Source of the DNA: Norana najaformis
Taxonomy: Eukaryota; Annelida; Clitellata; Crassiclitellata; Hormogastridae
DNA length: 64,000 bases
Assembly: GCA_964023275.1 (NCBI GenBank)
Contig: OZ029915.1
Span: 19,321,775-19,385,774 of the forward strand
Reading direction: 5' to 3'
Part shown: positions 33,801-63,623 of the stretch, piece after piece
Layout: every line of letters begins with the position of its first letter
Numbering within the stretch: the stretch's first letter is position 1
Notes under the pieces: model-generated
What the model was told of the DNA's origin: nothing
Databases searched by the model: none
Seen by the model: only the letters and a program-made list of their open reading frames with translations
Translations under genes and position numbers: made by a program

Positions 33801-36800
33801 TTCTGCTTCAATATCTAGCACAAAAAAAAACAAAGAAAAGATTATGACAAATATTATAAACAATAAGTAATGTTATCAGACATGTAAAAAACATTATGAC
33901 AAATATTATAAACAATAAGTAATGTTATCAGACATGTAATTTTCTGGAAATTCCTGAAACTCCTCAGCAGTATTCTCCAACCAACAACATTCAGACAAAC
34001 TGCCACGTGCTAAAAGGTTTAAACCAATAATATTCATTTTAAAGTCACAGTTCAAAATTCATTTTAAAACAAATTAATAATCAGTTGGCCTCAGCTTATA
34101 TAATCCAGTGATGTCTCACAGTTATCAAAATTTAAAAACTCTTTACTTGCTTGATTACTGACAGACAGAACTTCAACTCCTATCTCCAGAGCCCCTCAGT
34201 GTGACAGCCTCAGATTCATTCAAACCCTTCTCACACACAAAGGAAATTCTTAAATTAAGTGCACTACATTCACCCACACAGATGCACATCTAGTCTTAGT
34301 TACTTTAGAGTGGGTCTACTTTTCTCAAATAGCACTGTTGTAGCCAACTTCAATACTTTGATCTCTAGTACCCTTTTGCTTGGTCTCTGACAAGATCAAG
34401 TGCAGTCATCAGGATTTCAGCTGCTGTTGCTTCAAAAGTTTTTCTTTATATTTTGCTCCATCAAAATTCTGCATTCTCTTCTACATCTCTAACATCTTCT
34501 ATAGATCTAGAAAACAAGAACCTTTCAGACACAGAATACAAAGTGCAGACTGATGACATGTTGCTAATCAATAAACTAACTGCAATTCTTGGGGAGATAA
34601 CACAGACAATGATGTGACAGACATAGCCTACTACAGAATTGTAATTGCAGTGGAAGTACCAAAAAAGTGGTCACTTGGGATCAAAGGACTAACAATTGCA
34701 TAATAATAATAAAATTTAAAAAAAATAAAATAAAATAATAATAATAATAGTGTATTGCTCTGCTGGTTTGTGACCACCTTCAGCTGTGCTAGAACTATTT
34801 CACTGGCCAACACATAATTTGTTGCCTCAAATGTTAGAACTGTTTCTGGGTATATTTGACCTGCTGATTCCAGAAAAGGCACCAGTTTTCTCCCAGCAGG
34901 TCTATTTTTCGAGATATAGAACATTATGCCATATACCAGTCCTTGCCTCTGCTCGCCCATAAAACATAAGGCTATAGCTATAATTATGTAGTGCTCAATT
35001 TATTATGTGATACACTAAATAAAAATAATAATACAAATACTTAAAAGAAAATGGTAGTACCTGAAACTGTACTTATATGATACCAAACAGAACAAGTTTG
35101 TTATAAAAATTTCAAGTCATTCGACACCGAAGAAGCTCCTTTTGTACGATTTCCGAGTGTGGCATCTGCCGGAACAATCGCGCATAATATTCCAGCAATA
35201 GTCTGCCATCATGTGTGCATCCCATCTTCCTTGATATCGATTTTCCATTGTTTTGATGTCTTGGTGAAATCTTTCACCTTGCTCTTCGCTGAAGTCACCA
35301 AGATTCTCTGGAAAGCGATCTAAGTGACTGTGGAGATAATGGACTTTAATGCTCATGTTGCAGCCAAGCTTGTTGAAATGAAGAAGCATATCCTCTACTA
35401 GTTGTGCATAATTGTCTGCCTTCTTGTTGCCAAGAAAATTTTTAGTTACAAGAACAAAGGAAGACCAGGCACAAGATTCGATTTCATTCATTGATGGTAT
35501 GAAAAGTGGGTCATTCATAAGTTGCCTGATCTGTGGACCATCGAAGATTCCAGCCTTCAATTTTTCCATTGTAATTCCTGGTAACTTGTGTACTATGTAT
35601 TCGAAGCATGAACCTTCTTTATTCAAAGCCCTGACAAATTGTTTCATCAGGCCTAGCTTTATATGTAGTGGTGGCAGTATGATCCTATCTCGTGTCACCA
35701 AAGATTCCTTGATTACATTTTGAGCTCCAACCACCATGTCTTTCCTCGAAGGCCAATCTTTTCTTGTCCAATGTTCATGCTTGGCTCTACTGTCCCAAAG
35801 ACACAAAAAGCAGGGATACTTTGTGTAGCCACTTTGTTGACCAAGGAGGAAATTTACCATCTTCAAGTTTACATAAATTACCCATTGATGTTGTTTGTAT
35901 TTTATCTTTTCCAGTACTAAAGAGATGGCATTGTACTCTTCTTTCATCCTGGTGGAGTGACCGATTGGAATAGAACCAAATTTGTTGCCGTTATTTAAAA
36001 GCACACATTTCAGACTACGTTTTGAACTGTCGATAAAAAGACGCCACTCATCTGGATTGTAATCCGACAGACCAATTTTCTTCAATAAGTTGCTGAAATC
36101 ATTACAGAATACTAGGTTGTTGTCTTCGGTAAAGAATGGCAGCAAATCCTTTTCTCTGTTTCTATAAATTGTAATTTTCGTTCCAGGCTGAAGTGCATTC
36201 TTTTCCTTTAGTCTGGACGCAAGCAATTCAGAGGACTCTTTGGAAAGATTTAAGTCCCTGATCAGATCACTCAACTCTTTTTGGTCAAAACGTTCACTGT
36301 GTGAAGTTGATTGGAAATCACTGTCACTGCCCCCACTTTCTTCACTTTCGTCATCTTGTCCGATATTGGACATGCAAGTTTCATCGTCTGAGAGCTGAGG
36401 TAGTTCGCGAAAAGGTGGAACTGGTACAATATCCGAATGCGGAACAGGTCTCCTGGCTGAAGGTATATCAGGGTAAGACAACTTGTGACGATTATTTCGA
36501 TTGATGCCTATGATATTAACCATACAAAAGTAACAGTCGTCGAAGTGGTTTATCTGTTCCCTCCAAACCATCGGTACACCAAATTTCAGGCAGCTTCTCT
36601 TTCCAATTGTCCAGTGGCGCAATTGTTCAATACAAGTTTTGCATACTGTATGAGGAGCCCATTGCTTATCTTGATCTCCAAGTACGACACCAAAATAACC
36701 TACATATGCTCTTTTTACAAACTCAGAAATCGGTTTCCTCTTTGCTTTTAGTGTGTATTCCCCACAAATGTAGCAGAATATGTCTGGATGGTTAATGCAG

Positions 36801-39800
36801 CTCCGTCTGGAAGTAGCCATAACCTTAAGGATGTTCGCATCTGAGGAATTAAATGACTAGCCCAAAAAATAGTAAGAACATGTAGTTATTTAATGCTCAC
36901 ATTCACAGATTGTTCTTGCGACCAACTCTTAATATGCCCTAAGACGACTGCGGCTGCTCTAGCTTTCAGGAGGCGGTTTATATAGGCTATAAATGCTGAC
37001 TTCAGCATAATCTATTTACATAGTTCGAAACCATGAAACGCTGTATAAGCACAAATAAATTCTAAATGAGGCCATGAATTTAGTGCTGAGTAAGCTGTAG
37101 GCTACGGAATAGTTATTTCGTTGAATCAGCAATATCTCAGCACGCGCAAGATATGCTGATTTTACATTATAAGGATGTAGGCATTATATGAATCAGCAAG
37201 AATTATAATTAGCCATAAATAAAGCTTATTATGACATTTTAGTTTTGCCAAAGACATCGTTTAAAGAGTGGACTGGGTTTTCTTTACAAAATCGACGATA
37301 TCTCAGAAACTAGACCTGATGCACTCAATCCAATGACATTTTCTGAATCAGCGCCCAAAATTACCCCAAGAACAGGTCTAAAACCGAAGGCAACAAGAAA
37401 AAAAATTTTTTCTGTTGGCCAGTGTTTTTATTCTCCAGAAATTTTTTTAAAGCCCTGAGGAATCATTTCTACCTCAAACCATTAATTACTTTTATAAACA
37501 ACATCCAAGATGATCAAAACACTAAACTACTGAGAACTATTTTTATATAACCACTAGATATATTTATATAACCACTATAATGAGAACTATTTTTATATAA
37601 TCCCTATATAATATTTTTATATAACCACTATAATGAGAACTATTTTTATATAACTTATAACACAATTTTAGTAATAACATTATTACCTTTGTGACTTAGC
37701 TTTCATTGGGCACAGTAGTTTTTTATGATGTTTTAAATCATATCAAACCCATGGTGGGGCTAGCCAACCTTGAACAATACGAAGCCATAGCCTTGATGAA
37801 ACCTGCAACTTTGCCCTTAAACTGTCTTGTTGTCTGGCAGCAGTCATTATTTATAGACCACAGCTACAGACGTTTTTCTTCGTCAAACAACCTGGATTCC
37901 AGTCTTAGAAACATTATGCAGCTACATTCTTACTTTGCTTCTGAACAAGATCTATGGACACCAAGCTATGCCAGACTAACAGAGCATAACATTAGGCAAA
38001 ATGTTTTGATTCCTGAAGAGCACTAAATGACTGATTCACATTTATCCTAACCAGGATCACAAAGATGCATCTCATTTAATCAAAAACAAACTTATAAAAC
38101 AACAGCAGCTTAAATCCTGGTGGCTACTTGATGAAGTCAATTAATCTGGTGAAAAACTGCTACAAATTCCTGAAGTTTCTGCTTAAGCTGCATGGTAGAA
38201 ATTAAAGGAATAAAGATTTTTGTAAAATACAGCCCGTGTTTTCGAGTCTATTCTCAGTAGATACTCAACTACTTTTCATTCCATCATTTGCTAAATGCTT
38301 TAATGTAAGCCTTCAAACAGTCATATGTTACTATATACACTGCATATACTACTGTCGGCTGGTTGCTCGCTACTTGTTGGTCACAAGATTGAACTGCAGC
38401 CACTAGATTATCAATAAGTAATGCATACATAGTTTATATCTGTAGCAAAAATGTTACAGTAGGACCCCATTTATGTGCAGTCACTGGGTGTTAACAAAGC
38501 GTGAGTTGAAAGGGCTATGCTGAAATAAAGGCCATGCTGAAATACAGTAGTGTATATTTTACGTAAGTCTTAGTGTGGTTAGAAAGCTTAAAGACATAGG
38601 CTTTCTGGTGTAAAGACACTAGCACTATAGCCTTCTACCAGACGATTCTGCCCAAATACTTTGAAAGGCAACATAGCTGTCTTGTTACTGGCAAATATGT
38701 AAGTGATTTAATACCAGACAATTTATGTTTCTGGCTATGTTAACATTGACTGTTTCTAGATATCATTTTAAAGGTGAAATCCTGTCAATCAGACTGCCAA
38801 GCCTATAAGTAGGCAGCTGTTGTAACCTTGGCTGAGTGAGCAAGCAGCTAAGCTCCTGTCAGAGGCAGGGTGGGCTGCTGGTTTTGGGGAGAGGAGACAT
38901 TTGCAGCTATATTAAGTGCATCTACTTTGGGCCTATGCTGCCCTCTGTACAGCTTAAATCCAGCTGCAGCCAGCAACTGTTGCCACCTATTGAGACAGCT
39001 GCTACAGCTGATACAGGCTGTCTAAAATAATCACAATGAGAATGAATACATGGAGTAGCCAGTGCAGCATGTGTATTGATTGTATCGCAGGCTAACGTGT
39101 CTCATGTGTTAAACAGGTATTAGCAGGGGCCTTGATGCCACCATGCATTAAGCGGATTCACTATATACAAGTCGCATGTAAACAAGACTTCACTGTATCT
39201 GAAATAAAAACTGATGTGACTAAATAGTGAAATACACAATATAATGGCTTCCGATACACTACTAAAACTTAAGCAACATCAAATGAGGCAGCCTACAAAA
39301 CCTCATTTAAAACACTGAAAGACAGAAGTCAGCAGACAAGTTTATTTTAGAGCTTAAAATAAAATAATCATCCAAAAGGCCACATGTAAGTCAATACATG
39401 CACTTAGTCTAATTTAGTCTAATTTAAAGTTAGCTGTCAATGAATTGCAGGACAATTAAGTCAAGCAGGCAGGAAGACTGAAAACATCTATATGATAAAA
39501 GGCTTAGAAACATAGGCAGTCAAGGATTACACATATGGATGAAACTATACGAATTTTTTAATTGACCAGCAAATTTAAGCCCATATTATAACTGTAATTA
39601 GAAACTTCTGTAGCATCGGTCTATATGTAACGCACAAGATATCAACTGATGGCACACCAAAATCAAGCTGCAGTCAGGTCAATATCCGTAAAGTCAGTCC
39701 AATGAATCAGAGGTAGCCTAGAGTGGATAAGTCAACTGAAAAGGCGAGTCTTGAGCTGAGACAGAAATGACACAAGAGACTAAGCAGAATGAACAGCTGC

Positions 39801-42648
39801 AGGAAGAGAATTCCAAAATTTAGATTCAGCATCCAAAAAAGCTCATCCAACGATAACAGTTCTAGTTTTTGGCACAACCACAGCAACAGACAGACAACCT
39901 GGTTGAATAACGACACATCTGGGGAAAAAGGATTGATTTAAGTAAATATTGTGGTTGGCCAGAGTTTAATGTTTTATAAATTATAAGCCCCAGTTTGAAA
40001 GAAATCCTTTGCTGAACAGGAAGCCAGTGCAAATATTTAAGCATAGGCTTTATATGCTCATATTTTGATATTTTGACATATTAGTTACTGTTCCATCCAA
40101 AGGGTTCTAAACACTTTGGTTTCCTTATGTTTGACTTTGTCATGCCAGGAAGAGGCAAGTCAAAGTAATCAAGGCAACTGAAGACCAATGCATTTGCCAA
40201 AGATATCCTTAAGGACAAGGAGACGTTGCACCTAATTCTGTGTATGTCACGAAAATTTATAGGTATGACGACTTACAAATACCATTTACATAGTCGGTGA
40301 GAGACATAGTAGAATAAAAAAACAAAGCCCAAGTTACAAACAGCAAAGGCAAATGAACAAGAGAGTCACCCAGTTTGAATTGCTCGAATCTTTAAAACTG
40401 GGTGACTTCGGTTGGCTTATGCTGCTTGTAACTTGGGCGTTGTTTTTTATTCTACTATTATTCTACTCAGCTGTTGTGGAGTGCCCAGTAGTAAAAATTC
40501 AGTTTTCGACAGGTTCTGCAGGATTTTGCTATGTGTTTGAAAGGTGATAAGCTATTTCATGTCAAACTGTTCCAACATATGAAGCAATGCTGAAGAAGAA
40601 TGACTAGTTACATGAAGATGAATATTAAAGTCACCTATAATCACTATTTCAGAAGGAGAGGAAATCAAATATTCAAGTAGTGACTGAAATTCACTCATAA
40701 AGTCAGTCAGAGAGAGGGATGGAGGGCAGTAAATGTTCATATGCAATACCTGGTTGTTGCCAGAAATAAGAGTAGCAGCTAGGACCTCAAATGACTTTGG
40801 TGCTGGAATAGATCAAATGAACCTAGGCAATGTTAGATAAAACGTCAAAAGAACCACCTTTACCATTCCACTGCTGCTCATTCAAAATAGTAAAAAAGGG
40901 GGCATAAGATTAGAAATGAATGCTGGTGTATCACACAAGGAAATCTCACAAAAAAGTGTGCAGCGTTGCGGCTTTATTATAAATAAAGCAAATATTTAAT
41001 TGACCAATATCCAGACTCTGAATTCTCACTGGTCCAGGATTACTTCAGTATCACCTGCCAAAAGAAGTAACAGAAGCAAATACAAGGACAACCAATGACG
41101 AATAACTGAAGATGTTTAACATGAGTTTGCACTAAACACCGGAAGGAAAATAACGTTACTGGTAGCACACAGCAGCAGCACATATGACTGAATAGAAAAA
41201 GCAGCACCAAGAACCAGGTAATAGGAATGGGCCTGAGCCAAGTTCCAAAGAAGACCAGACTGCATTGATGCATGCATGAATTCAATAACAGACTTAGTCT
41301 CTGTCAGTTCTGACAAGGAGCAGAAAGGAGCAGAGCACTATACGGTAAAAAAAAACAAGCAATGTAATGGGCTAGTCATAATGAGAAACACAGAAAGCCG
41401 TTATTTCAAGATGTGCTAAGATGCAATGAATTTCAAATTCGTTAATAAATACTGTTCCACAAATTTCAACAAAAATATGGTTTACCAAATCATCATTACT
41501 ATTAATGACAACAGATAAATTAGCATTCCACACAAAAGACATTACTTTCTTCTATATTAAGTTGTACTTAAACAACAGGCAATCTTCAAATAGTCTAGCA
41601 TTGGGAATCACCTGAATAAAGCAGGAGGGCAATGCTAATCATCTCAGCTATGACTGCGTCATTATACAGTAACTACCTAACAGGTAATCTACTTATTTAA
41701 ATGAGGTAAGGTAAGGTCGATGTCAACAGCCCTGGCAGATATAAGAGTTGAAATTTTTAAGGGCATATTTATATAGCATCTCTTCAAGAAAACTCATCAG
41801 AAGTGCTCCCGACCTGACAACACAAGACAACAAACAGAAGTTGTTAACACAGGATACAACGGGATACAATCTACAGACAATATCCTGTAGTACGGCTCAA
41901 TCCAACTATTGTATGGTAAAGTGGAAGTAGAAATCAACATTGATTCAATAATATGAGAACATTTTTGACAAAATGCTTTTGGACCATGGTAACAGAAAGC
42001 AACAGAGGATTCTACATAAATCATGGAGTGGGACAGGCAAAGAGAGGGAAGTGGAAGTTGAGGGAGGAAGAGAGGAAGAAGCAGGGGAATGGGATACTGG
42101 GTAGAAGACACTGAAGAGTGGAGGAGTGGTGGGGAAGAAAACTGAGAGGAGAGTGGAGTAAGAGGGAGAAATGGAAAGCAAAAAAAATTTAAGAGGCATG
42201 GGAGAGGAAAAGGCAGATAGGGGGAATGGAGATTACATATGGAAAACCATGGGAAGGGTAGATTAGGATAGATTATTGGATAAAGGGGTGATTGGGAGTG
42301 AAGACAGATGAAGAATCAGATTAAAAAATGGAAAGCAAAAGGGGATTTTATAAATGTAATAAAGGAAGTGAGACAGGTCAGGAAGGGCAAATTGGGGCAG
42401 AGATATGGGGAAGGGAAATTGGGGAATGGAAGAGTTGTGGTGGAGAGAGAAGGGCAAAAGGGAGAAACAGGACATGCTGTGGTGGAAGCAGGCACATGGG
42501 TCTGCCAGGAAATAAAGACAAATGGTAAACACAGAGAAACGGCTGCTTGTGATTGACCCACTTAAAAACAATATGGCCGCTGCAAACTATGAAAGAAATT
42601 AGAACACTGACACATACCAGAAGCTATCCCAGTTATTAAGTGAGTCAT
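9234..42648 (-). CDS. ATG9: Autophagy-related protein 9 (ATG9), 19 exons
   Basis: ATG9 is the transmembrane lipid scramblase that travels on Golgi/endosomal vesicles, seeds the phagophore, and works with ATG2 in membrane growth. Nineteen exons join in frame to 808 codons (human ATG9A has 839). Landmarks in order: an acidic N-terminus with a YVPF tyrosine sorting-type motif; W-HIEDLDKFF-RVY (residues 56-75); TM1 (about 92-110); TM2 (about 131-146); TWHEVQ (about 177); FILFWGP (about 250-257); TM3 (about 288-312); RHFNEL (about 339); TM4 region (377-422); FCPEKL; LEELLSP (474-480); FHNFTVEVAGVGD (about 502); HGHPE (526-530); GKTELSLMHF; and a variable C-tail with ALYLHDLHH. The family assignment is firm. 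The first exon and the 35-bp exon 18 are less certain. Intron 1 contains a complete DNA transposon. Confidence 0.93.
10634..10668 (-). CDS. ATG9: ATG9 exon 18, 35-bp microexon (candidate)
   Basis: Exon 17 ends in phase 1 and exon 19 starts in phase 0, so a linking exon is required. This one fits exactly: a pyrimidine-rich acceptor ending CTCCAGAG, 35 nt encoding FLIPEGSYIPQ, and the donor CAG/GTAAAA. Support is phase and splice consensus only, because the ATG9 tail is not conserved here. Confidence 0.5.
10836..11530 (-). mobile_element. Degenerate LINE 3' end(s), L2/CR1-type
   Basis: The minus strand holds a C-terminal ORF2 signature near 11440-11525 (LWDTLLPDLNQVPGLSLFK) and a second block at 10921-11139 containing SLHWLSDCISL, a decayed LHWLPV motif. 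The 10836-11010 part matches the LINE 3' region seen at 24957-25130 and 39640-39770 (shared CACCAAAACCAAGC and GGTCAATATCC). Several stops and shifts are present. It probably represents one or two overlapping truncated insertions in an ATG9 intron. Confidence 0.55.
11899..12661. mobile_element. MULE-like non-autonomous transposon (763 bp)
   Basis: A perfect 9-bp direct repeat GTAGGAAAC flanks the element (11890-11898 and 12662-12670). The ends are short inverted repeats, GGTAACCC at left and GGGGTGCC at right (6 of 8 pairing). Both subterminal zones, about 100-140 bp each, are studded with GCGCGC motifs (for example ATGCGCGCCGACC on the left, GTGCGCGC on the right) and are far more CpG-rich than the AT-rich core or the surrounding intron. 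No transposase is encoded. A 9-bp duplication is typical of Mutator-like elements, but the family is inferred from this alone. Confidence 0.65.
12950..13870 (+). mobile_element. Degenerate L2-type LINE reverse transcriptase
   Basis: On the plus strand a broken frame reads KFLAFFADK near 12990, LLDIIPLLKECFDVLG near 13150, TSTINFSLHDGSF, then near 13620-13740 LTYGVPESSTFSPFLFT and HFCADDTEIY, a variant of the YADD catalytic box. This order matches the L2/CR1 ORF2 linker and palm. Numerous stops make it an old fossil. It lies antisense in an ATG9 intron. Confidence 0.65.
13893..13987. repeat. 19-bp tandem repeat, 5 copies
   Basis: Five exact head-to-tail copies of TTGCTTAATTCTTTAATAA just after the degenerate LINE. 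The exact identity implies recent expansion. Confidence 0.9.
14101..14167 (-). CDS. ATG9: ATG9 exon 17
   Basis: Encodes MTNPEWKPQQTEDHFLK and neighbouring residues (563-584), aligning with ITNPGWQPP...FL of human ATG9A. Acceptor AATGCAG; donor CAAG/GTATGC. Ends in phase 1. Confidence 0.88.
14582..14677 (-). CDS. ATG9: ATG9 exon 16
   Basis: Thirty-two codons (531-562) ending GKTELSLMHFN, the conserved block of ATG9. The acceptor GATTTTAG fixes the start at TGG in phase 0. The donor is AAT/GTGAGT. Confidence 0.92.
15587..15766 (-). CDS. ATG9: ATG9 exon 15 (core block, GC donor)
   Basis: Sixty codons (471-530) with LEELLSPIFTPFILAF, FHNFTVEVAGVGD and MDIKKHGHPE, the best-conserved part of ATG9. 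The only donor that keeps frame with exon 16 is GAG/GCCAGT, a GC-AG intron. The nearest GT sites would give the wrong phase or are very poor. Confidence 0.93.
16880..16914. repeat. (AT)n microsatellite
   Basis: A nearly pure AT dinucleotide run, self-complementary, in an ATG9 intron. Confidence 0.9.
17021..17155 (-). CDS. ATG9: ATG9 exon 14
   Basis: Forty-five codons (426-470): FCPEKLMRAVQAHVHYLPD then W-NGQMHT and EFSQFF, aligning with FCPEQLLRVILAHIHYMPD of human ATG9A. Phase 0 at both ends; donor TTG/GTGAGT. Confidence 0.93.
18017..18164 (-). CDS. ATG9: ATG9 exon 13 (TM4 region)
   Basis: Residues 377-425. Two hydrophobic stretches (CFLAGAAGVILFVMKLM and FAAVMAAIVAVFYGARALI) flank HDEIRNID, matching the ATG9 segment between FFAGSILAVLIAL and CRSFIPD. 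Acceptor TTTTAG; donor GAG/GTAAGA. Confidence 0.93.
18374..19360. mobile_element. pogo-like non-autonomous element A
   Basis: Ends begin TACCGTATTTTCCGGAATAT and, in reverse complement from the right, TACCATACTTTCTAGACTAG. They are imperfect but alignable inverted repeats bounded by TA. Subterminal copies of GTGCATCTTAT and GGTGCAACTTAT recur near both ends. The core is GC-richer and has no transposase. TA duplication and TACCGTAT ends suit the Tc1/mariner-pogo group; the subfamily is unknown. It is more diverged than its neighbour element B. Confidence 0.65.
19645..19684. repeat. (ATC)n microsatellite
   Basis: A tandem ATC run, part of a wider CAT/ATC-rich stretch from about 19565. Confidence 0.9.
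19833..20994. mobile_element. pogo-like non-autonomous element B (1.16 kb)
   Basis: Perfect inverted repeats of 27 bp run from TACCGTATATCTCCGAGTAT at the left to its exact complement at the right, bounded by TA. Extra inverted copies of CGACTTATACTCGAG lie just inside each end, so each terminus can fold on itself. The core has short frames but no DDE transposase. The perfect ends mark it as younger than element A, with which it shares the TACCGTAT start and layout. Both lie in the same ATG9 intron. Confidence 0.8.
21455..21600 (+). repeat. SINE-like repeat (GATTAC-tailed family), copy 1
   Basis: Shares CTTCTGGCAATC, CCACTGACTTGACACAGCG, TGAATAAGCTGGTGC and a terminal AGAAAT...ACGATTATGATT with the copy at 47885-48030. 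Confidence 0.65.
22049..22123 (-). CDS. ATG9: ATG9 exon 12
   Basis: Encodes LNRAYRPAKSYIDIFSTRL and following residues (352-375), aligning with LNRGYKPASKYMNCF of human ATG9A. Donor GCAGA/GTATGT; phase 2 at both ends. Confidence 0.93.
22510..22613 (-). CDS. ATG9: ATG9 exon 11
   Basis: Thirty-four codons (317-350) containing VRSWSPYARLYLRHFNELDH, aligning with ARCWSLYGRCYLRHFNELEH of human ATG9A. Acceptor TTCTCTGCAG; donor CCAG/GTAATT. Confidence 0.95.
23202..23301 (-). CDS. ATG9: ATG9 exon 10 (TM3)
   Basis: Residues 284-316: LSRRILLTAVVNLLLCPFIF, then WKIIYIVLKYVP. This is the ATG9 transmembrane segment starting LSNRILWIGIANFLLCP in human. The donor CCG/GTATGT keeps frame with exon 11. Confidence 0.94.
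23887..23971 (-). CDS. ATG9: ATG9 exon 9
   Basis: Encodes GPWAPFENSWHLKKEYKS and RRKELGD. With exon 8 it completes the FILFWGP motif across the splice (T/GG codon). Donor CA/GTAAGT. Confidence 0.94.
24107..24186. repeat. Imperfect tandem duplication
   Basis: The unit ATCTCATGGAATTT...ACATAGGAAATTA occurs twice in a row with a few substitutions. Intronic. Confidence 0.8.
24261..24310 (-). CDS. ATG9: ATG9 exon 8, 50 bp
   Basis: Encodes VYLTNDLLSNLEFILF (239-254), aligning with VFFTRGLKYNFELILF in human ATG9A. Acceptor GTTTTAG; donor TTCT/GTGAGT. Too short to see without its neighbours; phases match both sides. Confidence 0.92.
24610..24676. repeat. AT-rich foldback (TAA/TTA)n
   Basis: A (TTA)n run followed by (TAA)n, able to form a hairpin; simple-sequence origin. 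Confidence 0.7.
24678..25140 (-). mobile_element. LINE 3'-end fragment
   Basis: Starts (plus coordinates) with CAACTTCTGTAGTGCTGCT, the degenerate form of the LINE 3' terminus GGCGCTATAGAAGTT read on minus. It shares CACAAGGCATCAACTGA, CACACCAAAACCAAGC and GGTCAATATCCAGAA with the LINE at 39.6 kb. No open frame is left. Confidence 0.55.
25883..25982 (-). CDS. ATG9: ATG9 exon 7
   Basis: Residues 206-237: IYHRMLRFKNYLVAMINKSV then LQIKFDVPCVGK, aligning with IYHRILRFQNYMVALVNKSL of human ATG9A. The start of the exon completes an Asp codon with exon 6. Donor TA/GTAAGA. Confidence 0.95.
27293..27395 (-). CDS. ATG9: ATG9 exon 6
   Basis: Residues 171-204: MTWHEVQRRLLEVQKDLKMC, then IHKPELTEL, aligning with CTWQEVQ...ICIHKRELTEL of human ATG9A. 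Acceptor CTCTAG; donor TTAG/GTAAGA. Confidence 0.95.
27760..28130 (+). mobile_element. Possible decayed LINE RT fragment
   Basis: LVHLFSLKQTDYCNLIIAGK resembles the CR1/L2 motif SRLDYCNSLLAG that follows the RT palm, and LPKYLHN follows. The similarity is weak and stops when it reaches the perfect hairpin at 27997-28057. Confidence 0.3.
27997..28057. repeat. Perfect 26-bp hairpin, 9-nt loop
   Basis: Left arm 27997-28022 and right arm 28032-28057 are exact reverse complements, with loop CACAATGCA. The arms start GTATTTCTCACATATTTTCT. Intronic in ATG9, between exons 5 and 6. Confidence 0.95.
28521..28656 (-). CDS. ATG9: ATG9 exon 5 (TM2)
   Basis: Residues 126-170. YIGVIIGIALSVFRIFKNFY is the second membrane segment, then YLEMRAFYCSALQI, aligning with YWEIHSFYLHALRI of human ATG9A. 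Acceptor TTACATAG; donor TCA/GTGAGT. Confidence 0.93.
29012..29270 (-). repeat. tRNA-derived SINE with duplicated tail
   Basis: On minus, a tRNA-like head (GGGACATGGTAGCTGATTGG; later GGATTTGAGCCTC as a B-box-like element) is followed by a tail ending in CTTAGAACCA. The tail segment TGGTTCTAAGCATCTTTCAA occurs twice (plus 29018 and 29201), flanking the head. This suggests a dimer or nested copy. Confidence 0.6.
30423..30524 (-). CDS. ATG9: ATG9 exon 4 (TM1)
   Basis: Residues 92-124. HVVVITLAFVLMDVIFSSKD lies where ATG9 has FVV..TTFL..CVDYDILF, then CSELINGGEVLK. The acceptor TTTTTTTCCATAG is very strong and the phases (2 in, 2 out) match exons 3 and 5. The donor TG/GTATTC is weak. Sequence similarity alone is modest; position, membrane character and phase carry the call. 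Confidence 0.72.
30830..31020 (-). repeat. tRNA-derived SINE
   Basis: The minus-strand head looks like a tRNA: GGGCTGTGCGATGGCCTAGT (A box), then GGGGTCCAAATCCCC (B box and T-arm), continuing into a non-tRNA body. Not a tRNA gene: the acceptor stem does not pair and a SINE body follows. Confidence 0.7.
31290..31500. repeat. AT-rich degenerate tandem region
   Basis: Repeating AATATTTAATATAA-type units, almost free of G and C. Confidence 0.7.
31596..31704 (-). CDS. ATG9: ATG9 exon 3
   Basis: Residues 56-90: RWSHIEDLDKFFTRVYRYHQ, then GGFGCMLMEDFCQL, aligning with PWHHIENLDLFFSRVYNLHQ and NGFTCMLIGEIFEL in human. Acceptor CTCTCTAG; donor AGT/GTGAGT. Confidence 0.95.
31919..32364. mobile_element. 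Inverted-repeat element with internal duplication
   Basis: Arms 31919-31962 and 32322-32364 are near-exact inverted repeats (start TGATATATAAATATG, inner AGACTATGCCATATG). Inside, a block of about 60 bp (GTAAATGACACAGTTGAAAT ... GGACTAATTG) occurs twice in direct order (about 32083 and 32263). No coding capacity and no clear target duplication. Probably a MITE; family unknown. Confidence 0.5.
32870..33063 (+). repeat. tRNA-derived SINE
   Basis: Head with CAAGGCAGTAGCTGATTAGA (A-box region) and GGGTTCGAGCCTCACCC (B box and T-arm), body with GGTACTTTGGGCAAATCCTT, a motif shared by many SINE 3' bodies, then repeated GAGCTTATTAAA(C/T)(G/A)CAGAAAT tail units and an (ATA) run. Confidence 0.75.
33683..33814 (-). 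CDS. ATG9: ATG9 exon 2 (acidic N-terminus)
   Basis: Residues 12-54: IEAEMDRTLKTPYVPFVDMD, DENDEEPP, then IIQVMPDQDK, resembling the acidic ATG9 N-terminus before the W-HIE motif. YVPF fits the YxxPhi sorting signal that human ATG9A carries near its start. Acceptor TTTGTGCTAG; donor ACAT/GTAAAT. An in-frame Met (residue 16) could be an alternative start. Confidence 0.85.
33841..33939. repeat. 47-bp direct duplication beside ATG9 exon 2
   Basis: ATTATGACAAATATTATAAA...GACATGTAA occurs at 33841-33887 and 33893-33939 without change, just upstream of the exon 2 acceptor. Confidence 0.92.
34703..34750. repeat. (TAA)n-rich microsatellite
   Basis: Two TAA runs with an A-rich middle, next to transposon copy 1. 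Confidence 0.85.
34999..35004 (-). terminator. polyA signal of transposon copy 1
   Basis: AATAAA on minus, 113 nt after the transposase stop; the same position as in copy 2. Confidence 0.65.
35117..36820 (-). CDS. Transposase-like protein, 567 aa (copy 1)
   Basis: Intact single-exon gene from a family found in many invertebrate genomes, usually annotated only as uncharacterised. Residues 8-99 carry paired cysteines (C16-C19, C60-C63, C96-C99) suggesting a zinc-binding, DNA-recognition head. Residues 144-182 are acidic and Ser-rich. The C-terminal two-thirds resembles a DDE nuclease core: FIDSSK (D264), a CFLCLWDS insert with Cys pair (337, 340), LPPLHIKLGLMKQFVRAL, then GERFHQD (E516). Residue 318 is Asn in YVNLK, where copy 2 has Asp; if this is the second catalytic acid, this copy may be inactive for cleavage. 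The DDE assignment is my inference from motif order. Twelve residues differ from copy 2. Confidence 0.8.
   Translation of the reverse strand: MATSRRSCINHPDIFCYICGEYTLKAKRKPISEFVKRAYVGYFGVVLGDQDKQWAPHTVCKTCIEQLRHWTIGKRSCLKFGVPMVWREQINHFDDCYFCMVNIIGINRNNRHKLSYPDIPSARRPVPHSDIVPVPPFRELPQLSDDETCMSNIGQDDESEESGGSDSDFQSTSHSERFDQKELSDLIRDLNLSKESSELLASRLKEKNALQPGTKITIYRNREKDLLPFFTEDNNLVFCNDFSNLLKKIGLSDYNPDEWRLFIDSSKRSLKCVLLNNGNKFGSIPIGHSTRMKEEYNAISLVLEKIKYKQHQWVIYVNLKMVNFLLGQQSGYTKYPCFLCLWDSRAKHEHWTRKDWPSRKDMVVGAQNVIKESLVTRDRIILPPLHIKLGLMKQFVRALNKEGSCFEYIVHKLPGITMEKLKAGIFDGPQIRQLMNDPLFIPSMNEIESCAWSSFVLVTKNFLGNKKADNYAQLVEDMLLHFNKLGCNMSIKVHYLHSHLDRFPENLGDFSEEQGERFHQDIKTMENRYQGRWDAHMMADYCWNIMRDCSGRCHTRKSYKRSFFGVE
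36978..36984 (-). promoter_or_regulatory. TATA box of transposon copy 1
   Basis: TATATAA on minus, about 160 nt before the transposase ATG; conserved at the same place in copy 2. Confidence 0.6.
37530..37652. repeat. Tandem repeat, about 40-bp unit, three copies
   Basis: Units of GAGAACTATTTTTATATAA followed by CCACTATAAT-type spacers, imperfect. Confidence 0.85.
39595..41040 (-). mobile_element. L2-type LINE, internally deleted
   Basis: Reading on minus: SLDIGQLNIC and AATLHTF near 40.95-41.03 kb (start of the endonuclease domain), NIYCPPSLSLTDF and EIVIIGDFNIHL at 40.60-40.75 kb (endonuclease core, GDFN box), then LHWLPVQQRISFKLGL at about 39.99-40.04 kb (RT C-terminal region), and the 3' end CGATGCTACAGAAGTTTC near 39605. 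The catalytic RT palm is missing, and a foldback element sits between the two parts. Several frame breaks. It lies in ATG9 intron 1 in the sense orientation. Confidence 0.75.
40306..40458. mobile_element. Foldback (hairpin) element, 153 bp
   Basis: The outer arms (ATAGTAGAATAAAAAA and complement) extend through AAGCCCAAGTTACAAACAGC with two mismatches. An inner palindrome, AGTCACCCAGTTT paired with AAAACTGGGTGACT, surrounds the centre. The element folds almost end to end. It is inserted in the LINE. No clear target duplication. Confidence 0.8.
42000..42475 (+). repeat. Purine-rich tract
   Basis: A long G/A-biased stretch (GGGAAGTGG, GAGGAAGAG, GGGGAATGG units) with few pyrimidines; a degenerate simple repeat upstream of ATG9. 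Confidence 0.6.
42618..42648 (-). CDS. ATG9: ATG9 exon 1 (candidate initiator exon, 31 bp)
   Basis: Acceptor TTACTTACAG is followed directly by ATG, ten codons (MTHLITGIAS) and the donor CTG/GTATGT. Phase 1 joins exactly to exon 2, making an Asp codon. Because it has an acceptor, a 5' untranslated exon must lie further upstream; a donor AAG/GTGAGA at 43507 is a possible end for it. Not supported by homology, so the true start may differ. Confidence 0.45.
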
Positions 42649-43799
42649 CTGTAAGTAACAGACTAACAAAAGTTTTTAAAATACTTTTACTGGTGTCAAT
42701 AAATGAAGAAATCACAGAGTAACACAAAGGTATCGATAAATTATGAAATCGGGTAATTTCTGTGATGCAAATAAGAATGTGCCAATCGCTAAAAGCGGAG
42801 AAACTAAGCCTTGTGCAAATGTACGGTGCTCAGTATATCTTCAATATCTACAATGACCATTCACTCAGTCTAGTTGATCGACTTAACATCATTCCAGTCT
42901 CTAATGATTACTATAGATAACATGGGTTTTAAAGTTTAAACAATTGCATGTCATGGTATTAAAGTTTCAAAAAAGTTTTATATGGTGAAAGCTTCACTGA
43001 AAGTAAGTGAAAGTTTTAAAAAGTTCCGAAAGTTTGGCCAAAGCCTGCAGAATGCGGGTGAATAGGATCATAGTATACACCAGTGGAGTCATTTTCCATT
43101 TTTAATTAAACTGGAAATTCGCGTTAATTTATTTTATTGCATTGCTGGTTTGAAGAAATGGTAACATATACCAAAATAACGTTTTACCAAAGACAAAGAC
43201 GATCCGAAGCGAGTCTAAAGCCATGTAAAACTCGCACAATCCTACTAACCTGACAATCTAACCTGGACAACGCAAGTGCAAATTACTGCGCAGGTAGCAG
43301 CTGGATAAAGAAAGAGGCAACTCTGTTCGAACTCAAGTCAAGTCCCAGGTACTAAAACTCTCACGAGTTGATAGACAAAGAATGCAGTTGATGGAAAAAC
43401 AAACAATGAGCACGCAGGTGGTACAATATAGACGGCCATGAACTTTAGCTATTCATCTGTTTGACCCGTCAACAATGAATGGCAGAGCAGAGCTGAAGGT
43501 TCTCACCTTATTTGGCCTCAGATTGGTTGAACTCAAACTTCCAAACTGAAGATGAATCTTCCGCCGAAGCGACAGTCTCAGGTGATAGCAAAAACTCAGC
43601 ACCACTGTTCGTAACAGATGATTTTATAAGATAATCGCCAATAATAAACCCGCATTTCTATCTCCAAATTCTGCTATCAAAATACAACGCGTTGATTCAT
43701 GGGTAAATACTATGTATACAAAATATAAATTGGCCAATTGACAAAATCTCTAGCGCTATACTACACATAAGTAAGACAATCAGATATGATCTAATCTCA

Positions 43800-43905
43800 G
43801 AACTTCTATAGCGGTACTATATTAGGCATTAGGCATCAATCGATGGCACTCTAAAATAGAATAGAAATTCGAGCAATTTCAAGGGTAAGTCCAATCAGAC
43901 AGAAA
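43800..43905 (-). mobile_element. LINE 3'-terminus fragment
   Basis: Contains ACTTCTATAGCGGTACTAT and GGCATCAATCGATGGCACTC, the 3' end of the local LINE family read on the opposite strand. Confidence 0.5.
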
Positions 43906-43917
43906 GACAGCTTAAGG

Positions 43918-44110
43918 TCGTGGCTTATTTTAGAGATTTGAATCTAGGGTCAGCACGGTTCGTACACGGGGACATTAAATAGTTTGGCGCCCATTTAGAC
44001 GGGTAGCGGTAGTGAAGGATCTCACTACAATTAATTAATTGAAACAATGAGCACGGTCGAGCCCATACAGTCGCTACAGAAAAACGTGTGTATTTACATT
44101 TACATTTAAG
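43918..44110. repeat. Dispersed repeat, copy 2 (SINE-like)
   Basis: Partner of the repeat at 7010-7190. It ends in ATTTACATTTACATTT, a simple tail. Confidence 0.55.
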
Positions 44111-44314
44111 AAGGATAAGCATAATGAAACAAACCGATTAAAGTCAATAACAGAATGCAAAGTCGTAGCAGAGCGAACAGAATACGGAAATGCACCCCAG
44201 AATTGTGGATCAGCGACAGAAAAAGCCCGGATGCTAAGTGCAGTATTCACGTGGTTGGCAAGAGAAAGACAATAAGACCACCCATAAATGTAAAATGTAA
44301 ATGAACGTGTTCTT

Positions 44315-44729
44315 CTATAGCGACCGTATGGCCTCGACCCTGCTCGTTGTGGAGTAATGATAGTTCTGAGACGTAATAGTATTCGTAATCGTAAGTCTGA
44401 GATCTCTACAGAATGCTAAGTCGCGGGAACCAGCTAATTCACATTTGCTCAGACAAAACATTACACCTAAATTGCGGACAGGAGAGTTAGTATTAAAGGT
44501 GTGTGTGAAAGCAAGTCTAGGGACAGATAGAAAGGGCAAGAATTTTCCTGAGCTGGTCACGTAGGCCAATAACTATGAATTCGGTTTTAGATGGGTTCAG
44601 GCACAAGAGATTAGATGTCATCCAGGAGGAGATTTGTTCAACCACACGAAGTAGATGATCTGTAGGGTCGCTGAAACAAATCGGAGAAAAAGAGATAAAT
44701 AACTGGATGTCGTCAGCGGACAATGTCAA
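44315..44729 (-). mobile_element. L2-type LINE RT fragment
   Basis: Minus strand encodes SADDIQLFISF (a YADD-box variant), WMTSNLLCLNPSKTEFIVIG and VRNLGVMF, the standard order from RT palm to thumb in CR1/L2 LINEs. It is split over two frames and truncated at both ends. Confidence 0.8.
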
Positions 44730-44779
44730 CTGAGGATGCTTAAATAATTAGTGAACTGAACTGGCTAGGTAAACTGCCT

Positions 44780-44925
44780 CCCTGACTCTTGATTCTTAAC
44801 CCGGAACCTTTTCGGATCCTCATACCTAACGATTTTGTTTTGATTGAGCGAATGTGAATAAGGTGGTTTCCGCTACTTAGCTTTCGTTGGGCGCTGTAGA
44901 AATCTCTTATTTGTGATTACGATAT
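44780..44925 (+). repeat. SINE-like repeat (GATTAC-tailed family), copy 2
   Basis: Shares CCTGACTCTTG, GATTTTGTTTTGA, GACTGAGCG-like, TTAGCTTTCGTTGGGCGCTG and TAGAAATCTC...GATTACG with the copies at 48880 and 55530. Confidence 0.7.
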
Positions 44926-45493
44926 GCTGAAGCTACTTCGGATGACCAGAATATAGTGTCTCATGGGCAATTACACCAATTTTTAAACTATGCCTAATTC
45001 TTTGCTCACCAGAGAGTCAATACATTGATTTAAGAACTGGGTTAGTGTGATCACACTGGCCAACAGAAAATTTTTTTTTCTTGTTGCCTTCAGTTTTAGA
45101 CCTGTTCTTGGGGTAATTTTAGGCGCTGATTCAGAAAATGTCATTGGATTGAGTGCATCAGGTCTAGTTTCTGAGATATCGTCGATTTTGTAAAGAAAAC
45201 CCAGTCCACTCTTTAAACGATGTCTTTGGCAAAACTAAAATGTCATAATAAGCTTTATTTATGGCTAATTATAATTCTTGCTGATTCATATAATGCCTAC
45301 ATCCTTATAATGTAAAATCAGCATATCTTGCCGCGTGCTGAGATATTGCTGATTCAACGAAATAACTATTCCGTAGCCTACAGCTTACTCAGCACTAAAT
45401 TCATGGCCTCATTTAGAATTTATTTGTGCTTATACAGCGTTTCATGGTTTCGAACTATGTAAATAGATTATGCTGAAGTCAGCATTTATAGCC

Positions 45494-45500
45494 TATATAA
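45494..45500 (+). promoter_or_regulatory. TATA box of transposon copy 2
   Basis: TATATAA 157 nt before the transposase ATG, identical in copy 1. Confidence 0.6.
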
Positions 45501-45656
45501 ACCGCCTCCTGAAAGCTAGAGCAGCCGCAGTCGTCTTAGGGCATATTAAGAGTTGGTCGCAAGAACAATCTGTGGATGTGAGCATTAAATAACTAATGCT
45601 CTTACTATTTTTTAGGTTAGTCATTTAATTCCTCAGATGCGAACATCCTTAAGGTT

Positions 45657-47360
45657 ATGGCTACTTCCAGACGGAGCTGCATTAACCATCCAGACATATT
45701 CTGCTACATTTGTGGGGAATACACACTAAAAGCAAAGAGGAAACCGATTTCTGAGTTTGTAAAAAGAGCATATGTAGGTTATTTTGGTGTCAAACTTGGA
45801 GATCAAGATAAGCAATGGGCTCCTCATACAGTATGCAAAATTTGTATTGAACAATTGCGCCACTGGACAATTGGAAAGAGAAGCTGCCTGAAATTTGGTG
45901 TACCGATGGTTTGGAGGGAACAGATAAACCACTTCGACGACTGTTACTTTTGTATGGTTAATATCATAGACATCAATCGAAATAATCGTCACAAGTTGTC
46001 TTACCCTGATATACTTTCAGCCAGGAGACCTGTTCCGCATTCGGATATTGTACCAGTTCCACCTTTTCGCGAACTACCTCAGCTCTCAGACGATGAGACT
46101 TGCATGTCCAATATCGGACAAGATGACGAAAGTGAAGAAAGTGGGGGCAGTGACAGTGATTTCCAATCAACTTCACACAGTGAACGTTTTGACCAAAAAG
46201 AGTTGAGTGATCTGATCAGGGACTTAAATCTTTCCAAAGAGTCCTCTGAATTGCTTGCGTCCAGACTAAAGGAAAAGAATGCACTTCAGCCTGGAACGAA
46301 AATTACAATTTATAGAAACAGAGAAAAGGATTTGCTGCCATTCTTTACCGAAGACAACAACCTAGTATTCTGTAATGACATCAGCAACTTATTGAAGAAA
46401 ATTGGTCTGTCGGATTACAATCCAGATGAGTGGCGTCTTTTTATCGACAGTTCAAAACGTAGTCTGAAATGTGTGCTTTTAAATAACGGCAACAAATTTG
46501 GTTCTATTCCAATCGGTCACTCCACCAGGATGAAAGAAGTGTACAATGCCATCTCTTTAGTACTGGAAAAGATAAAATACAAAGAACATCAATGGGTAAT
46601 TTATGTAGACTTGAAGATGGTAAATTTCCTCCTTGGTCAACAAAGTGGCTACACAAAGTATCCCTGCTTTTTGTGTCTTTGGGACAGTAGAGCCAAGCAT
46701 GAACATTGGACAAGAAAAGATTGGCCTTCGAGGAAAGACATGGTGGTTGGAGCTCAAAATGTAATCAAGGAATCTTTGGTGGCACGAGATAGGATCATAC
46801 TGCCACCACTACATATAAAGCTAGGCCTGATGAAACAATTTGTCAGGGCTTTGAATAAAGAAGGTTCATGCTTCGAATACATAGTACACAAGTTACCAGG
46901 AATTACAATGGAAAAATTGAAGGCTGGAATCTTCGATGGTCCACAGATCAGGCAACTTATGAATGACCCACTTTTCATACCATCAGTGAATGAAATCGAA
47001 TCTTGTGCCCGGTCTTCCTTTGTTCTTGTAACTAAAAATTTTCTTGGCAACAAGAAGGCAGACAATTATGCACAACTAGTAGAGGATATGCTTCTTCATT
47101 TCAACAAGCTTGGCTGCAACATGAGCATTAAAGTCCATTATCTCCACAGTCACTTAGATCGCTTTCCAGAGAATCTTGGTGACTTAAGCGAAGAGCAAGG
47201 TGAAAGATTTCACCAAGACATCAAAACAATGGAAAATCGATATCAAGGAAGATGGGATGCACACATGATGGCAGACTATTGCTGGAATATTATGCGCGAT
47301 TGTTCCGGCAGATGCCACACTCGGAAATCGTACAAAAGGAGCTTCTTCGGTGTCGAATGA
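45657..47360 (+). CDS. Transposase-like protein, 567 aa (copy 2)
   Basis: The same protein as in copy 1, with Asp at 318 (YVDLKMVNFLLGQQ). D264, D318 and E516 are therefore all present and this copy could encode an active enzyme. The N-terminal Cys pairs (16/19, 60/63, 96/99) and the central C337-C340 pair are kept. The first ATG follows a leader of about 160 nt after the TATA box; upstream the frame is not open with another Met. There are no introns, and the gene fills 65 percent of the element. I do not know an experimentally described member of this family. The transposase role rests on its complete inverted-repeat frame and motif layout. Confidence 0.83.
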   Translation: MATSRRSCINHPDIFCYICGEYTLKAKRKPISEFVKRAYVGYFGVKLGDQDKQWAPHTVCKICIEQLRHWTIGKRSCLKFGVPMVWREQINHFDDCYFCMVNIIDINRNNRHKLSYPDILSARRPVPHSDIVPVPPFRELPQLSDDETCMSNIGQDDESEESGGSDSDFQSTSHSERFDQKELSDLIRDLNLSKESSELLASRLKEKNALQPGTKITIYRNREKDLLPFFTEDNNLVFCNDISNLLKKIGLSDYNPDEWRLFIDSSKRSLKCVLLNNGNKFGSIPIGHSTRMKEVYNAISLVLEKIKYKEHQWVIYVDLKMVNFLLGQQSGYTKYPCFLCLWDSRAKHEHWTRKDWPSRKDMVVGAQNVIKESLVARDRIILPPLHIKLGLMKQFVRALNKEGSCFEYIVHKLPGITMEKLKAGIFDGPQIRQLMNDPLFIPSVNEIESCARSSFVLVTKNFLGNKKADNYAQLVEDMLLHFNKLGCNMSIKVHYLHSHLDRFPENLGDLSEEQGERFHQDIKTMENRYQGRWDAHMMADYCWNIMRDCSGRCHTRKSYKRSFFGVE

Positions 47361-47472
47361 CTTGAAATTTTTATAACAAACTTGTTCTGTTTGGTATCAT
47401 ATAAGTACAGTTTCAGGTACTACCATTTTCTTTTAAGTATTTGTATTATTATGTTTATTTAGTGTATCACAT

Positions 47473-47478
47473 AATAAA
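47473..47478 (+). terminator. polyA signal of transposon copy 2
   Basis: AATAAA 113 nt after the stop codon. Confidence 0.65.
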
Positions 47479-47884
47479 TTGAGCACTACATAATTATAGC
47501 TATAGCCTTATGTTTTATGGGCGAGCAGAGGCAAGGACTGGTATATGGCATAATGTTCTATATCTCGAAAACTAGACCTGCTGGGAGAAAACTGGTGCCT
47601 TTTCTGGAATCAGCAGGTCAAATATACCCAGAAACAGTTCTAACATTTGAGGCAACAAATTATGTGTTGGCCAGTGTCATGTTTAGAAGTAATCTTATCT
47701 GCAATAGGCTAGCCATAGAAATTGAATTCTGAACTTTAAATCTTTGACAAATTTGCTTTTGTGACACCAACTGATTATTGCTTAGGCCTAAGCTATGTTG
47801 GATTTATTGGAATTTACACAACAGTACAGCTATTTTTCTATAACTTTATAAAAAGGTAACCTAAAACTGAAATCTGTCTAATTC

Positions 47885-48879: not shown

Positions 48880-49018
48880 CTGACTCTTGGATCTTGACCT
48901 GGAATCGAACCCTTTTGCCTATCGAATTTGTTCTGACTGAGCGCCTGTGGTTAAGCTGGTTCCCGCGACTTAGCTTTCTCTGGGCGCTGTAGAAATGTTG
49001 AGATTACGATTACGATTA
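48880..49018 (+). repeat. SINE-like repeat (GATTAC-tailed family), copy 4
   Basis: GGATCTTGACCTGGAATCGA, GACTGAGCGCCTGTGGTTAA, TGGGCGCTGTAGAAATGTTG, then GATTACGATTACGATTA. The reverse complement of GGAATCGAACCC matches a tRNA B box. Confidence 0.75.
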
Positions 49019-63345: not shown

Positions 63346-63352
63346 CATGAAA

Positions 63353-63461
63353 GTGCAATGCAATGCAAAGTGCAATGCAATGCAAAGTGCAATGCAATGC
63401 AAAGTGCAATGCAATGCAAAGTGCAATGCAATGCAAAGTGCAATGCAATGCAGTGCAATGC
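63353..63461. repeat. 17-bp minisatellite, 6-7 copies
   Basis: Unit GTGCAATGCAATGCAAA, almost perfect, directly abutting the 5' truncation point of the LINE. TGCAATGCA-like sequence continues, more loosely, to about 63560. Confidence 0.92.
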
Positions 63462-63623
63462 ATTACTGTACAATGCATTAAAATACTATAGGTATTATGC
63501 GTACCAAACAGTACAAAACATGACAGAGCCATGCAATGCATTGCAGCAACACAATGCAGTGTAACCTATTGTAATACAATACTATACATCATACGATCAA
63601 AGTAATATAGGATTCAGTCATGC

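What the first reader, a model, noticed from the sequence alone, without database searches (positions are those of the whole stretch)
34801..47676. Two complete, near-identical transposons in inverted orientation with intact genes
The copies at 34801-37424 (minus) and 45054-47676 (plus) differ by one base in length and by 12 residues in a 567-codon gene, and each keeps full ends. Target duplications differ (TTT, TCA), so these are two separate, recent insertions about 7.6 kb apart. Intact genes and matching TATA and polyA signals imply a family active in the recent past, perhaps still. The transposase-like family is common in invertebrate genomes but I know of no experimental description.
Basis: partly seen in the sequence, partly recalled or inferred. 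Interest (0 to 1): 0.75.

Follow-up and report, generated by a model that had tools for sequence, protein, structure and literature searches.

The report
Young Chapaev3-type transposon burst, 1,400 copies
The two elements belong to a very young cut-and-paste "jumping gene" family of the Chapaev3 kind that has over a thousand nearly identical copies in its host genome, and about a quarter of the copies in a sampled stretch seem to have lost one end, in a way that suggests half-finished jumps.

Summary
In detail: two complete 2.62-kb elements, inverted, 7.6 kb apart, 24 substitutions, different 3-bp target duplications, unrelated flanks. A 25-mer from the transposase core has 1,433 exact matches in the 608-Mb genome. 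Of 41 copies compared, 38 keep the 567-codon frame and 39 lie 0-0.34% from the majority; A and B are the most diverged. The pair is not special: copies on C1 are spaced as chance predicts. CACTGG...CCAGTG ends, A|TWA|T targets (80 of 100 listed left flanks TWA), C(2)C, LH and H(4)H motifs and size fit Chapaev3 (PMC4079192). "Intact genes" needs correcting: copy A has Asp318Asn at the presumed second catalytic residue (4 exact matches genome-wide), so A is probably no working source. Unexpected: 15 of 55 consecutive core-bearing copies on C1 lack one end (11 junctions seen, 4 presumed). Of 21 one-end losses examined, 14 carry 7-66-bp target duplications abutting the break, with the intact end mostly at a canonical target. 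One-ended integration, or one-ended cutting with templated repair, explains this best.

The parts
34801..37424 (-). Copy A, full-length element (2624 bp)
   Evidence: CACTGG/CCAGTG ends and 99% identity to copy B
35117..36820 (-). Transposase ORF of copy A, 567 aa, with D318N
   Evidence: the ORF listing; residue differences
35867..35869 (-). Codon 318 of copy A: AAC (Asn) in place of GAC (Asp), presumed second catalytic acid
   Evidence: 25-mer with AAC matches exactly at 4 places in the genome, one of them this one; the 25-mer with GAC at 1,433
34798..34800 (.). TSD of copy A (TTT), first copy
37425..37427 (.). TSD of copy A (TTT), second copy
45054..47676 (+). Copy B, full-length element (2623 bp)
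45657..47360 (+). Transposase ORF of copy B, 567 aa; D264, D318 and one of E512/E513/E516 are candidate catalytic acids (by motif and spacing only); C337-x2-C340, L385-H386, H494-x4-H499
46608..46610 (+). Codon 318 of copy B: GAC (Asp)
45657..46001 (+). N-terminal Cys-rich region (C16/C19, C60/C63, C96/C99), possible Chapa-type zinc finger
   Evidence: Sub-threshold Pfam zf-AD match, 17.6 bits against a cut-off of 28; motif positions
45051..45053 (.). TSD of copy B (TCA), first copy
47677..47679 (.). TSD of copy B (TCA), second copy
45054..45179 (+). 5' terminal inverted repeat of B: first 12 bp perfect, about 126 bp at 68.5% identity
47560..47676 (+). 3' terminal inverted repeat of B
45494..45501 (+). 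TATATAAA string upstream of the ORF (promoter role not tested)
47473..47478 (+). AATAAA string downstream of the ORF (role not tested)

Best explanation
A and B are two full-length copies of one young DNA transposon family of the Chapaev3 kind (CMC group). A 567-aa DDE transposase, probably with an N-terminal zinc-binding region, would bind the ~120-bp imperfect terminal inverted repeats, cut at the CAC/GTG ends and join the element to a target with a 3-bp stagger, preferring A|TWA|T; gap filling gives the 3-bp duplication. Shown: ends, TSDs, target preference, copy number, near-identity, open frames. Inferred: the chemistry, zinc binding, promoter and polyA roles. Copy A probably makes no working transposase (D318N) but could still be moved in trans; B keeps the acid but has ten residues off the majority and is untested. 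Activity today is not shown.
For: 1,433 exact matches of a 25-mer from the core, 0 for the reversed control; 1,404 for a 25-mer at element position 2257; 1,386 5'-end and 1,349 3'-end matches with up to one mismatch, reversed controls 2 and 0. Of 41 copies, 38 have the full frame and 39 lie 0-0.34% from the majority; 148 of 167 derived states are singletons. 3-bp TSDs exact in 33 of 36 both-ended copies with unmutated end motifs in the 55-copy C1 set and 37 of 50 in the score-selected set. Left flanks: 80 of 100 TWA, 93 of 100 A before it. Copy L014 lies in a tandem repeat; four other units in its flanks (5-9 mismatches in 37 bases) show the unoccupied site with one trimer where the filled site has two. 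C(2)C, LH, H(4)H present, as given for Chapaev3 in PMC4079192 (sections 3 and 14 read in full). D318 to C337 is 19 residues, as D708 to C727 in mouse RAG1 (RAG1 numbers recalled).
Against: No profile library or solved structure recognises the catalytic region; the single-sequence structure model was too poor to use (mean pLDDT 35). No independent relative could be aligned, so the catalytic residues rest on spacing and motifs. A and B themselves have AAA and TCA duplications, not TWA. 13 of 50 score-selected both-ended copies lack an exact 3-bp TSD (two of these have 4 or 5 bp), and 3 of 36 in the C1 set. The rarity of D318N among near-identical copies says nothing of selection.
Confidence: 0.88

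Rival explanations
1. An animal EnSpm/CACTA family rather than Chapaev3: same DDE/CMC chemistry, CACTG ends and 3-bp TSD without sequence preference.
For: CACT(A/G) termini and 3-bp TSD are also CACTA features (Table 1 of PMC4423477, passages); no phylogeny could be made here.
Against: The A|TWA|T preference is what PMC4079192 reports for the Chapaev3 elements it examined; CACTA targets are listed as variable. Length 2.62 kb and one 567-aa frame are close to Garfield_BM (2,289 bp, 556 aa) and Merrow_PM (2,451 bp, 78 + 484 aa).
Confidence: 0.1
2. The pair is part of a larger duplicated block, not two insertions.
For: A and B share four derived bases; two of them are in no other of the 41 copies and two in one other each.
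Against: Different TSDs and flanks that do not match each other; over 1,400 core matches elsewhere. A pair that does look like a segmental duplication (C1:7785369/7810156, both flanks shared) looks different.
Confidence: 0.01
3. For the one-end losses: not one-ended integration but later damage. Transposase cuts one end of an inserted element; the broken flank copies past the unoccupied site on the homologous chromosome, then joins the resected element by microhomology. The product is the same.
For: Predicts the same structure: flank, TSD, some of the far flank, truncated element, TSD, flank. In rice, excision repair commonly adds filler DNA while insertions are generally precise (PMC4423477, abstract and passages).
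Against: Needs an unoccupied homolog at the right moment; it would also give simple end losses without duplication, and 7 of 21 do lack one, so it is not excluded.
Confidence: 0.4
4. The truncated copies are assembly errors between near-identical repeats.
For: Over 1,400 near-identical copies are hard to assemble; no reads could be inspected.
Against: In 14 of 21 the duplication abuts the break and the intact end lies mostly at a canonical target; the breakpoints of these 14 all differ; no N in the 62 copies. A false join would not create a matching target duplication.
Confidence: 0.05

Closest known systems
Chapaev3 transposons (Merrow, Garfield, Conan; PMC4079192)
   Same: CAC...GTG ends, 3-bp TSD with TWA between A and T, C(2)C / LH / H(4)H motifs, about 560-aa transposase, 2.3-2.5 kb; one uninterrupted frame as in most Chapaev3 (Merrow and Garfield have two exons)
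   Different: Those are from other named hosts; I had no sequences to compare, so identity with an already described family is not excluded. The one-end-truncated class with long target duplications is not in the sections and passages I saw.
EnSpm/CACTA (CMC group)
   Same: CACT ends, 3-bp TSD; [quoted passage not shown]
   Different: Targets listed as variable; a second ORF is noted for CACTA (PMC4423477, passages)
Transib / RAG1
   Same: C(2)C and H(3-4)H motifs (PMC12730594, passages); D to C spacing of 19 residues (RAG1 numbers recalled); the Chapa zinc domain is reported in Chapaev, Chapaev3, TransibSU and RAG1 (PMC4411706, passages)
   Different: No match to RAG1 models in Pfam or to PDB chains; 3-bp, not 5-bp (recalled), duplications

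Membership tests
Chapaev3 | 5'-CAC...GTG-3' terminal inverted repeats | tested here: met
Chapaev3 | 3-bp TSD | tested here: met
   33 of 36 both-ended copies with unmutated end motifs in the C1 set; 37 of 50 in the score-selected set
Chapaev3 | TWA target between A and T | tested here: met
   80 of 100 left flanks TWA, 93 of 100 A before it; among 37 exact TSDs 25 TWA, 32 A before, 33 T after. The two window copies are exceptions in the trimer (AAA, TCA) but keep A and T around it.
Chapaev3 | C(2)C, LH and H(4)H motifs with DDE | tested here: met
   C337/C340, L385-H386, H494/H499; the DDE assignment itself is by spacing only
Chapaev3 | N-terminal Chapa zinc domain | tested here: inconclusive
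   Three Cys pairs; only sub-threshold Pfam zf-AD and DZR_2 matches
Chapaev3 | Position in transposase phylogeny | not testable with these tools
   No named Chapaev sequences held; no relatives confirmed in viral or prokaryote collections
EnSpm/CACTA | 3-bp TSD without sequence preference | tested here: not met
   Strong A|TWA|T preference
Transib/RAG1 | 5-bp TSD (recalled) | tested here: not met
   3 bp; one copy of 50, L042, has 5 bp
Family dominated by MITEs or other non-autonomous copies | Many more ends than cores | tested here: not met
   1,386 and 1,349 ends against 1,433 cores; derivatives with changed ends would be missed

The most novel reading that the evidence does not exclude
A substantial share (order of a quarter) of this Chapaev3 family's insertions are one-ended: transposase joins a single transposon end to a canonical A|TWA|T target by cutting only one strand; the exposed 3' end of the target is extended by tens of bases, switches by microhomology into the broken, unjoined end of the element and seals it. 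This leaves truncated copies with target duplications of 7-66 bp, much as in LINE 5' truncation but from a DDE transposase.
Probability: 0.4. Interest if true: 0.68.

Novelty: new member of a known kind. Interest (0 to 1): 0.5.

Why it matters
Chapaev elements are relatives of the CACTA and RAG/Transib transposases, and my searches of the held library showed no assay of one. A family with over a thousand near-identical copies, 38 of 41 compared ones with an open frame, and a natural D318N copy beside a D318 copy, is a practical starting point for one. If the one-ended class is made during integration, it shows how loosely this enzyme couples its two ends and how a DNA transposon can scatter dead copies and short duplications through a genome.

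Tried and rejected
Larger duplicated block: rejected (flanks, TSDs). Local hopping: with 94 score-selected positions, 4 pairs within 15 kb against 0.2 expected looked like clustering; with the fuller C1 list the number is as chance predicts, so I dropped it as a selection effect. Inverted bias of close pairs: 10 of 12 neighbour pairs under 60 kb on C1 are inverted, one of the two direct ones being a likely segmental duplication; too few to claim. MITE burst: end counts do not exceed core counts. Purifying selection among copies: 91 nonsynonymous and 35 synonymous changes, dN/dS 0.65, p = 0.03, but the 41 copies were mostly picked by similarity to B, so I draw nothing from it. Paralogous unoccupied site for the copy in a LINE-like repeat (C1:4081691): no match with up to 3 mismatches. 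Relatives in viral and prokaryote collections: none confirmed. Structure: mean pLDDT 35, so no fold search was made. Rfam and tRNA scans of the window: nothing.
Full report
The observation. In element orientation A (34801-37424, minus) is 2,624 bp and B (45054-47676, plus) 2,623 bp; they differ by 24 substitutions in 2,622 aligned bases plus short indels and by 12 residues in a 567-codon frame. The TSDs are AAA (TTT on the plus strand) and TCA, each with A before and T after. The 400-bp flanks of A and B gave no match to each other. The termini share 12 perfect bases and a longer inverted repeat of about 117-127 bp at 68-70%.

The family. The window lies in a 608-Mb genome of 17 contigs, unnamed; that it is an animal's is inference. 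A 25-mer over codon 318 has 1,433 exact matches and none when reversed; a 25-mer at element position 2257 has 1,404; the 5'-end pattern 1,386 and the 3'-end pattern 1,349, with up to one mismatch. At 2.62 kb each 1,433 copies would be about 3.8 Mb, 0.6% of the genome. I compared A, B and the 39 other places listed (40 scored, by similarity to B, of 1,209 first-look candidates): 38 of 41 keep the full frame; 39 lie 0-0.34% from the majority, A 0.65% and B 0.57%; 148 of 167 derived states occur in one copy only. This is a star-like, recent burst. With an assumed neutral rate of 1-5 x 10^-9 per site per year the mean of 4.7 changes per copy (39 copies) would mean roughly 0.4-1.8 million years; the rate is my assumption. 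A and B share four derived bases and are the most diverged of the 41, so they are an older pair or sublineage. Their closeness is not remarkable: over 47.6 Mb of C1, 108 positions give 8 neighbour pairs within 35 kb, 8.1 expected.

What it is. PMC4079192 (introduction and section 14 read in full; [quoted passage not shown] for the silkworm Chapaev3: C(2)C, LH and H(4)H motifs and a 3-bp TWA duplication between A and T, found also in all Chapaev3 elements its authors examined. Here: CACTGG...CCAGTG; C337/C340, L385-H386, H494/H499; 100 listed left flanks with 80 TWA and 93 A before it. The listing holds the first 100 exact matches, with A at -12, from C1 to C3; a few share flanks and are not independent. 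The N-terminus has three Cys pairs and sub-threshold Pfam zinc-finger matches, which may be the Chapa domain of PMC4411706 (passages), not proven. Asp318 is 19 residues before C337, as D708 is before C727 in mouse RAG1 (recalled). No library hit supports the catalytic region directly.

The corrected claim on intactness. Copy A has Asn at 318 (codon 35869-35867, minus). The 25-mer with AAC matches at 4 places in the genome, that with GAC at 1,433. If D318 is the second catalytic acid, A's protein is dead. Copy B keeps D318 but differs from the majority at ten residues; whether it works cannot be told.

How insertion goes. Copy L014 lies in a tandem repeat. Four other units in its flanks (5-9 mismatches in 37 bases) show the unoccupied site with one trimer where the filled site has two: insertion with a 3-bp duplication and no loss. 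For a set not picked by score I took the 2nd to 56th core matches of the list on C1 (the first, near the contig end, was left out): 55 copies, five of them read before (L040, L044, L021, L033, L025) and 50 read at both expected ends. The set needs an exact core 25-mer, so copies cut beyond the core are missed, and two of the 55 (7785369, 7810156) are a likely segmental duplication. Forty have both ends, four of these (1986185, 3629819, 3951564, 9370434) with altered end motifs, judged by eye; of the other 36, 33 have exact 3-bp duplications. Fifteen lack one end at the expected place: 11 with the junction seen, and 4 (15286009, 22987458, 24105356, 25841042) without, so for these an inserted stretch is not excluded.

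The truncated class. Junctions were examined in 21 one-end-truncated copies: 11 of the 62 fetched score-selected copies and 10 others of the C1 set. Fourteen carry an abutting target duplication of 7-66 bp: L037 9, L043 11, L046 24-27, L054 8, L062 60-66, L064 29-35, L049 13-15, L053 56-57 with 2 mismatches, L060 40-42 with 1, and C1 copies 1470720 9, 2303819 15, 3581455 31-35, 9618744 20-26, 11558977 7 (the higher figure counts bases shared with the element and in some cases a mismatch or two). Seven do not: L040 and 8427876 (in repeats), L047, 8982787, 4658412, 8170670, 910584. Of the 50 both-ended copies none has an exact abutting duplication of 7 bp or more. As a control, 42 of 3,782 random pairings of left and right flanks share 7 or more bases anywhere in 60. 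In the 14, the intact end lies at a normal target: A before the trimer in 13, T after it in 13. The breakpoints of the 14 all differ (5' 20-289, 3' 2378-2566). One to six bases are shared at the break, some with a mismatch; this is a best-fit count without a chance control, so microhomology is suggested, not shown.

Reading. A normal double-ended insertion would not place bases from beyond the 3-bp stagger on the other side of the element. Either only one strand of the target was cut and joined (one-ended integration) and its free 3' end was extended along the intact strand before it joined the broken element, or an inserted copy was later cut at one end and repaired from an unoccupied homolog. 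I cannot separate these. In rice, insertions were reported as generally precise and filler as a mark of excision (PMC4423477, abstract and passages). My searches for one-ended insertion of cut-and-paste elements (listings only) showed no title or abstract start on this class, which is weak evidence of absence.

Verdict. A real, ordinary-in-kind, very young Chapaev3-type family, found through two of its less typical members. The family, not the pair, is of interest, chiefly for its size, youth and the one-end-truncated class.

Noticed in passing
C1:4028807 and C1:4081691 (L095-L098): Two copies 53 kb apart, inverted, share the same left flank (LINE-like by eye) but have different right flanks; the first lacks a matching TSD.
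   Followed up: partly
C1:910584 (L071, L156, L157): Copy whose 5' end sits directly after 17 bases matching the reverse complement of the family's 3' end, so it seems inserted in another copy; its own 3' end stops at about position 2611.
   Followed up: partly
C2:9664212-9677308: Three copies in a row with the same right flank and a 5.2-kb period, the second and third also with the same left flank: a tandem array of element plus about 2.6 kb.
   Followed up: no
C1:58976816 and C1:59050193: Two copies 73 kb apart in opposite orientation with the same 12-base left flank.
   Followed up: no
L034, L035 (C10:781811, C10:772785): Inverted neighbours, both with a stop at codon 443 and mismatched TSDs, sharing derived bases; may have exchanged flanks.
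   Followed up: partly
L010, L015, L016, L017, L022, L030, L034, L035, L036, L039, L048: Eleven full-length copies of the score-selected set whose flanking trimers do not match; two more differ by length, L063 with 4-bp and L042 with 5-bp duplications.
   Followed up: partly
62418-63473 (minus): 351-aa open frame that reads like the reverse transcriptase end of a LINE (by eye).
   Followed up: no
44410-44460, 44812-44923, 48905-49016: Diverged repeats on either side of copy B; part of B's left flank also occurs beside L015, L018, L020 and L025.
   Followed up: no
51441-51704: Array of short ATCC-type tandem repeats.
   Followed up: no
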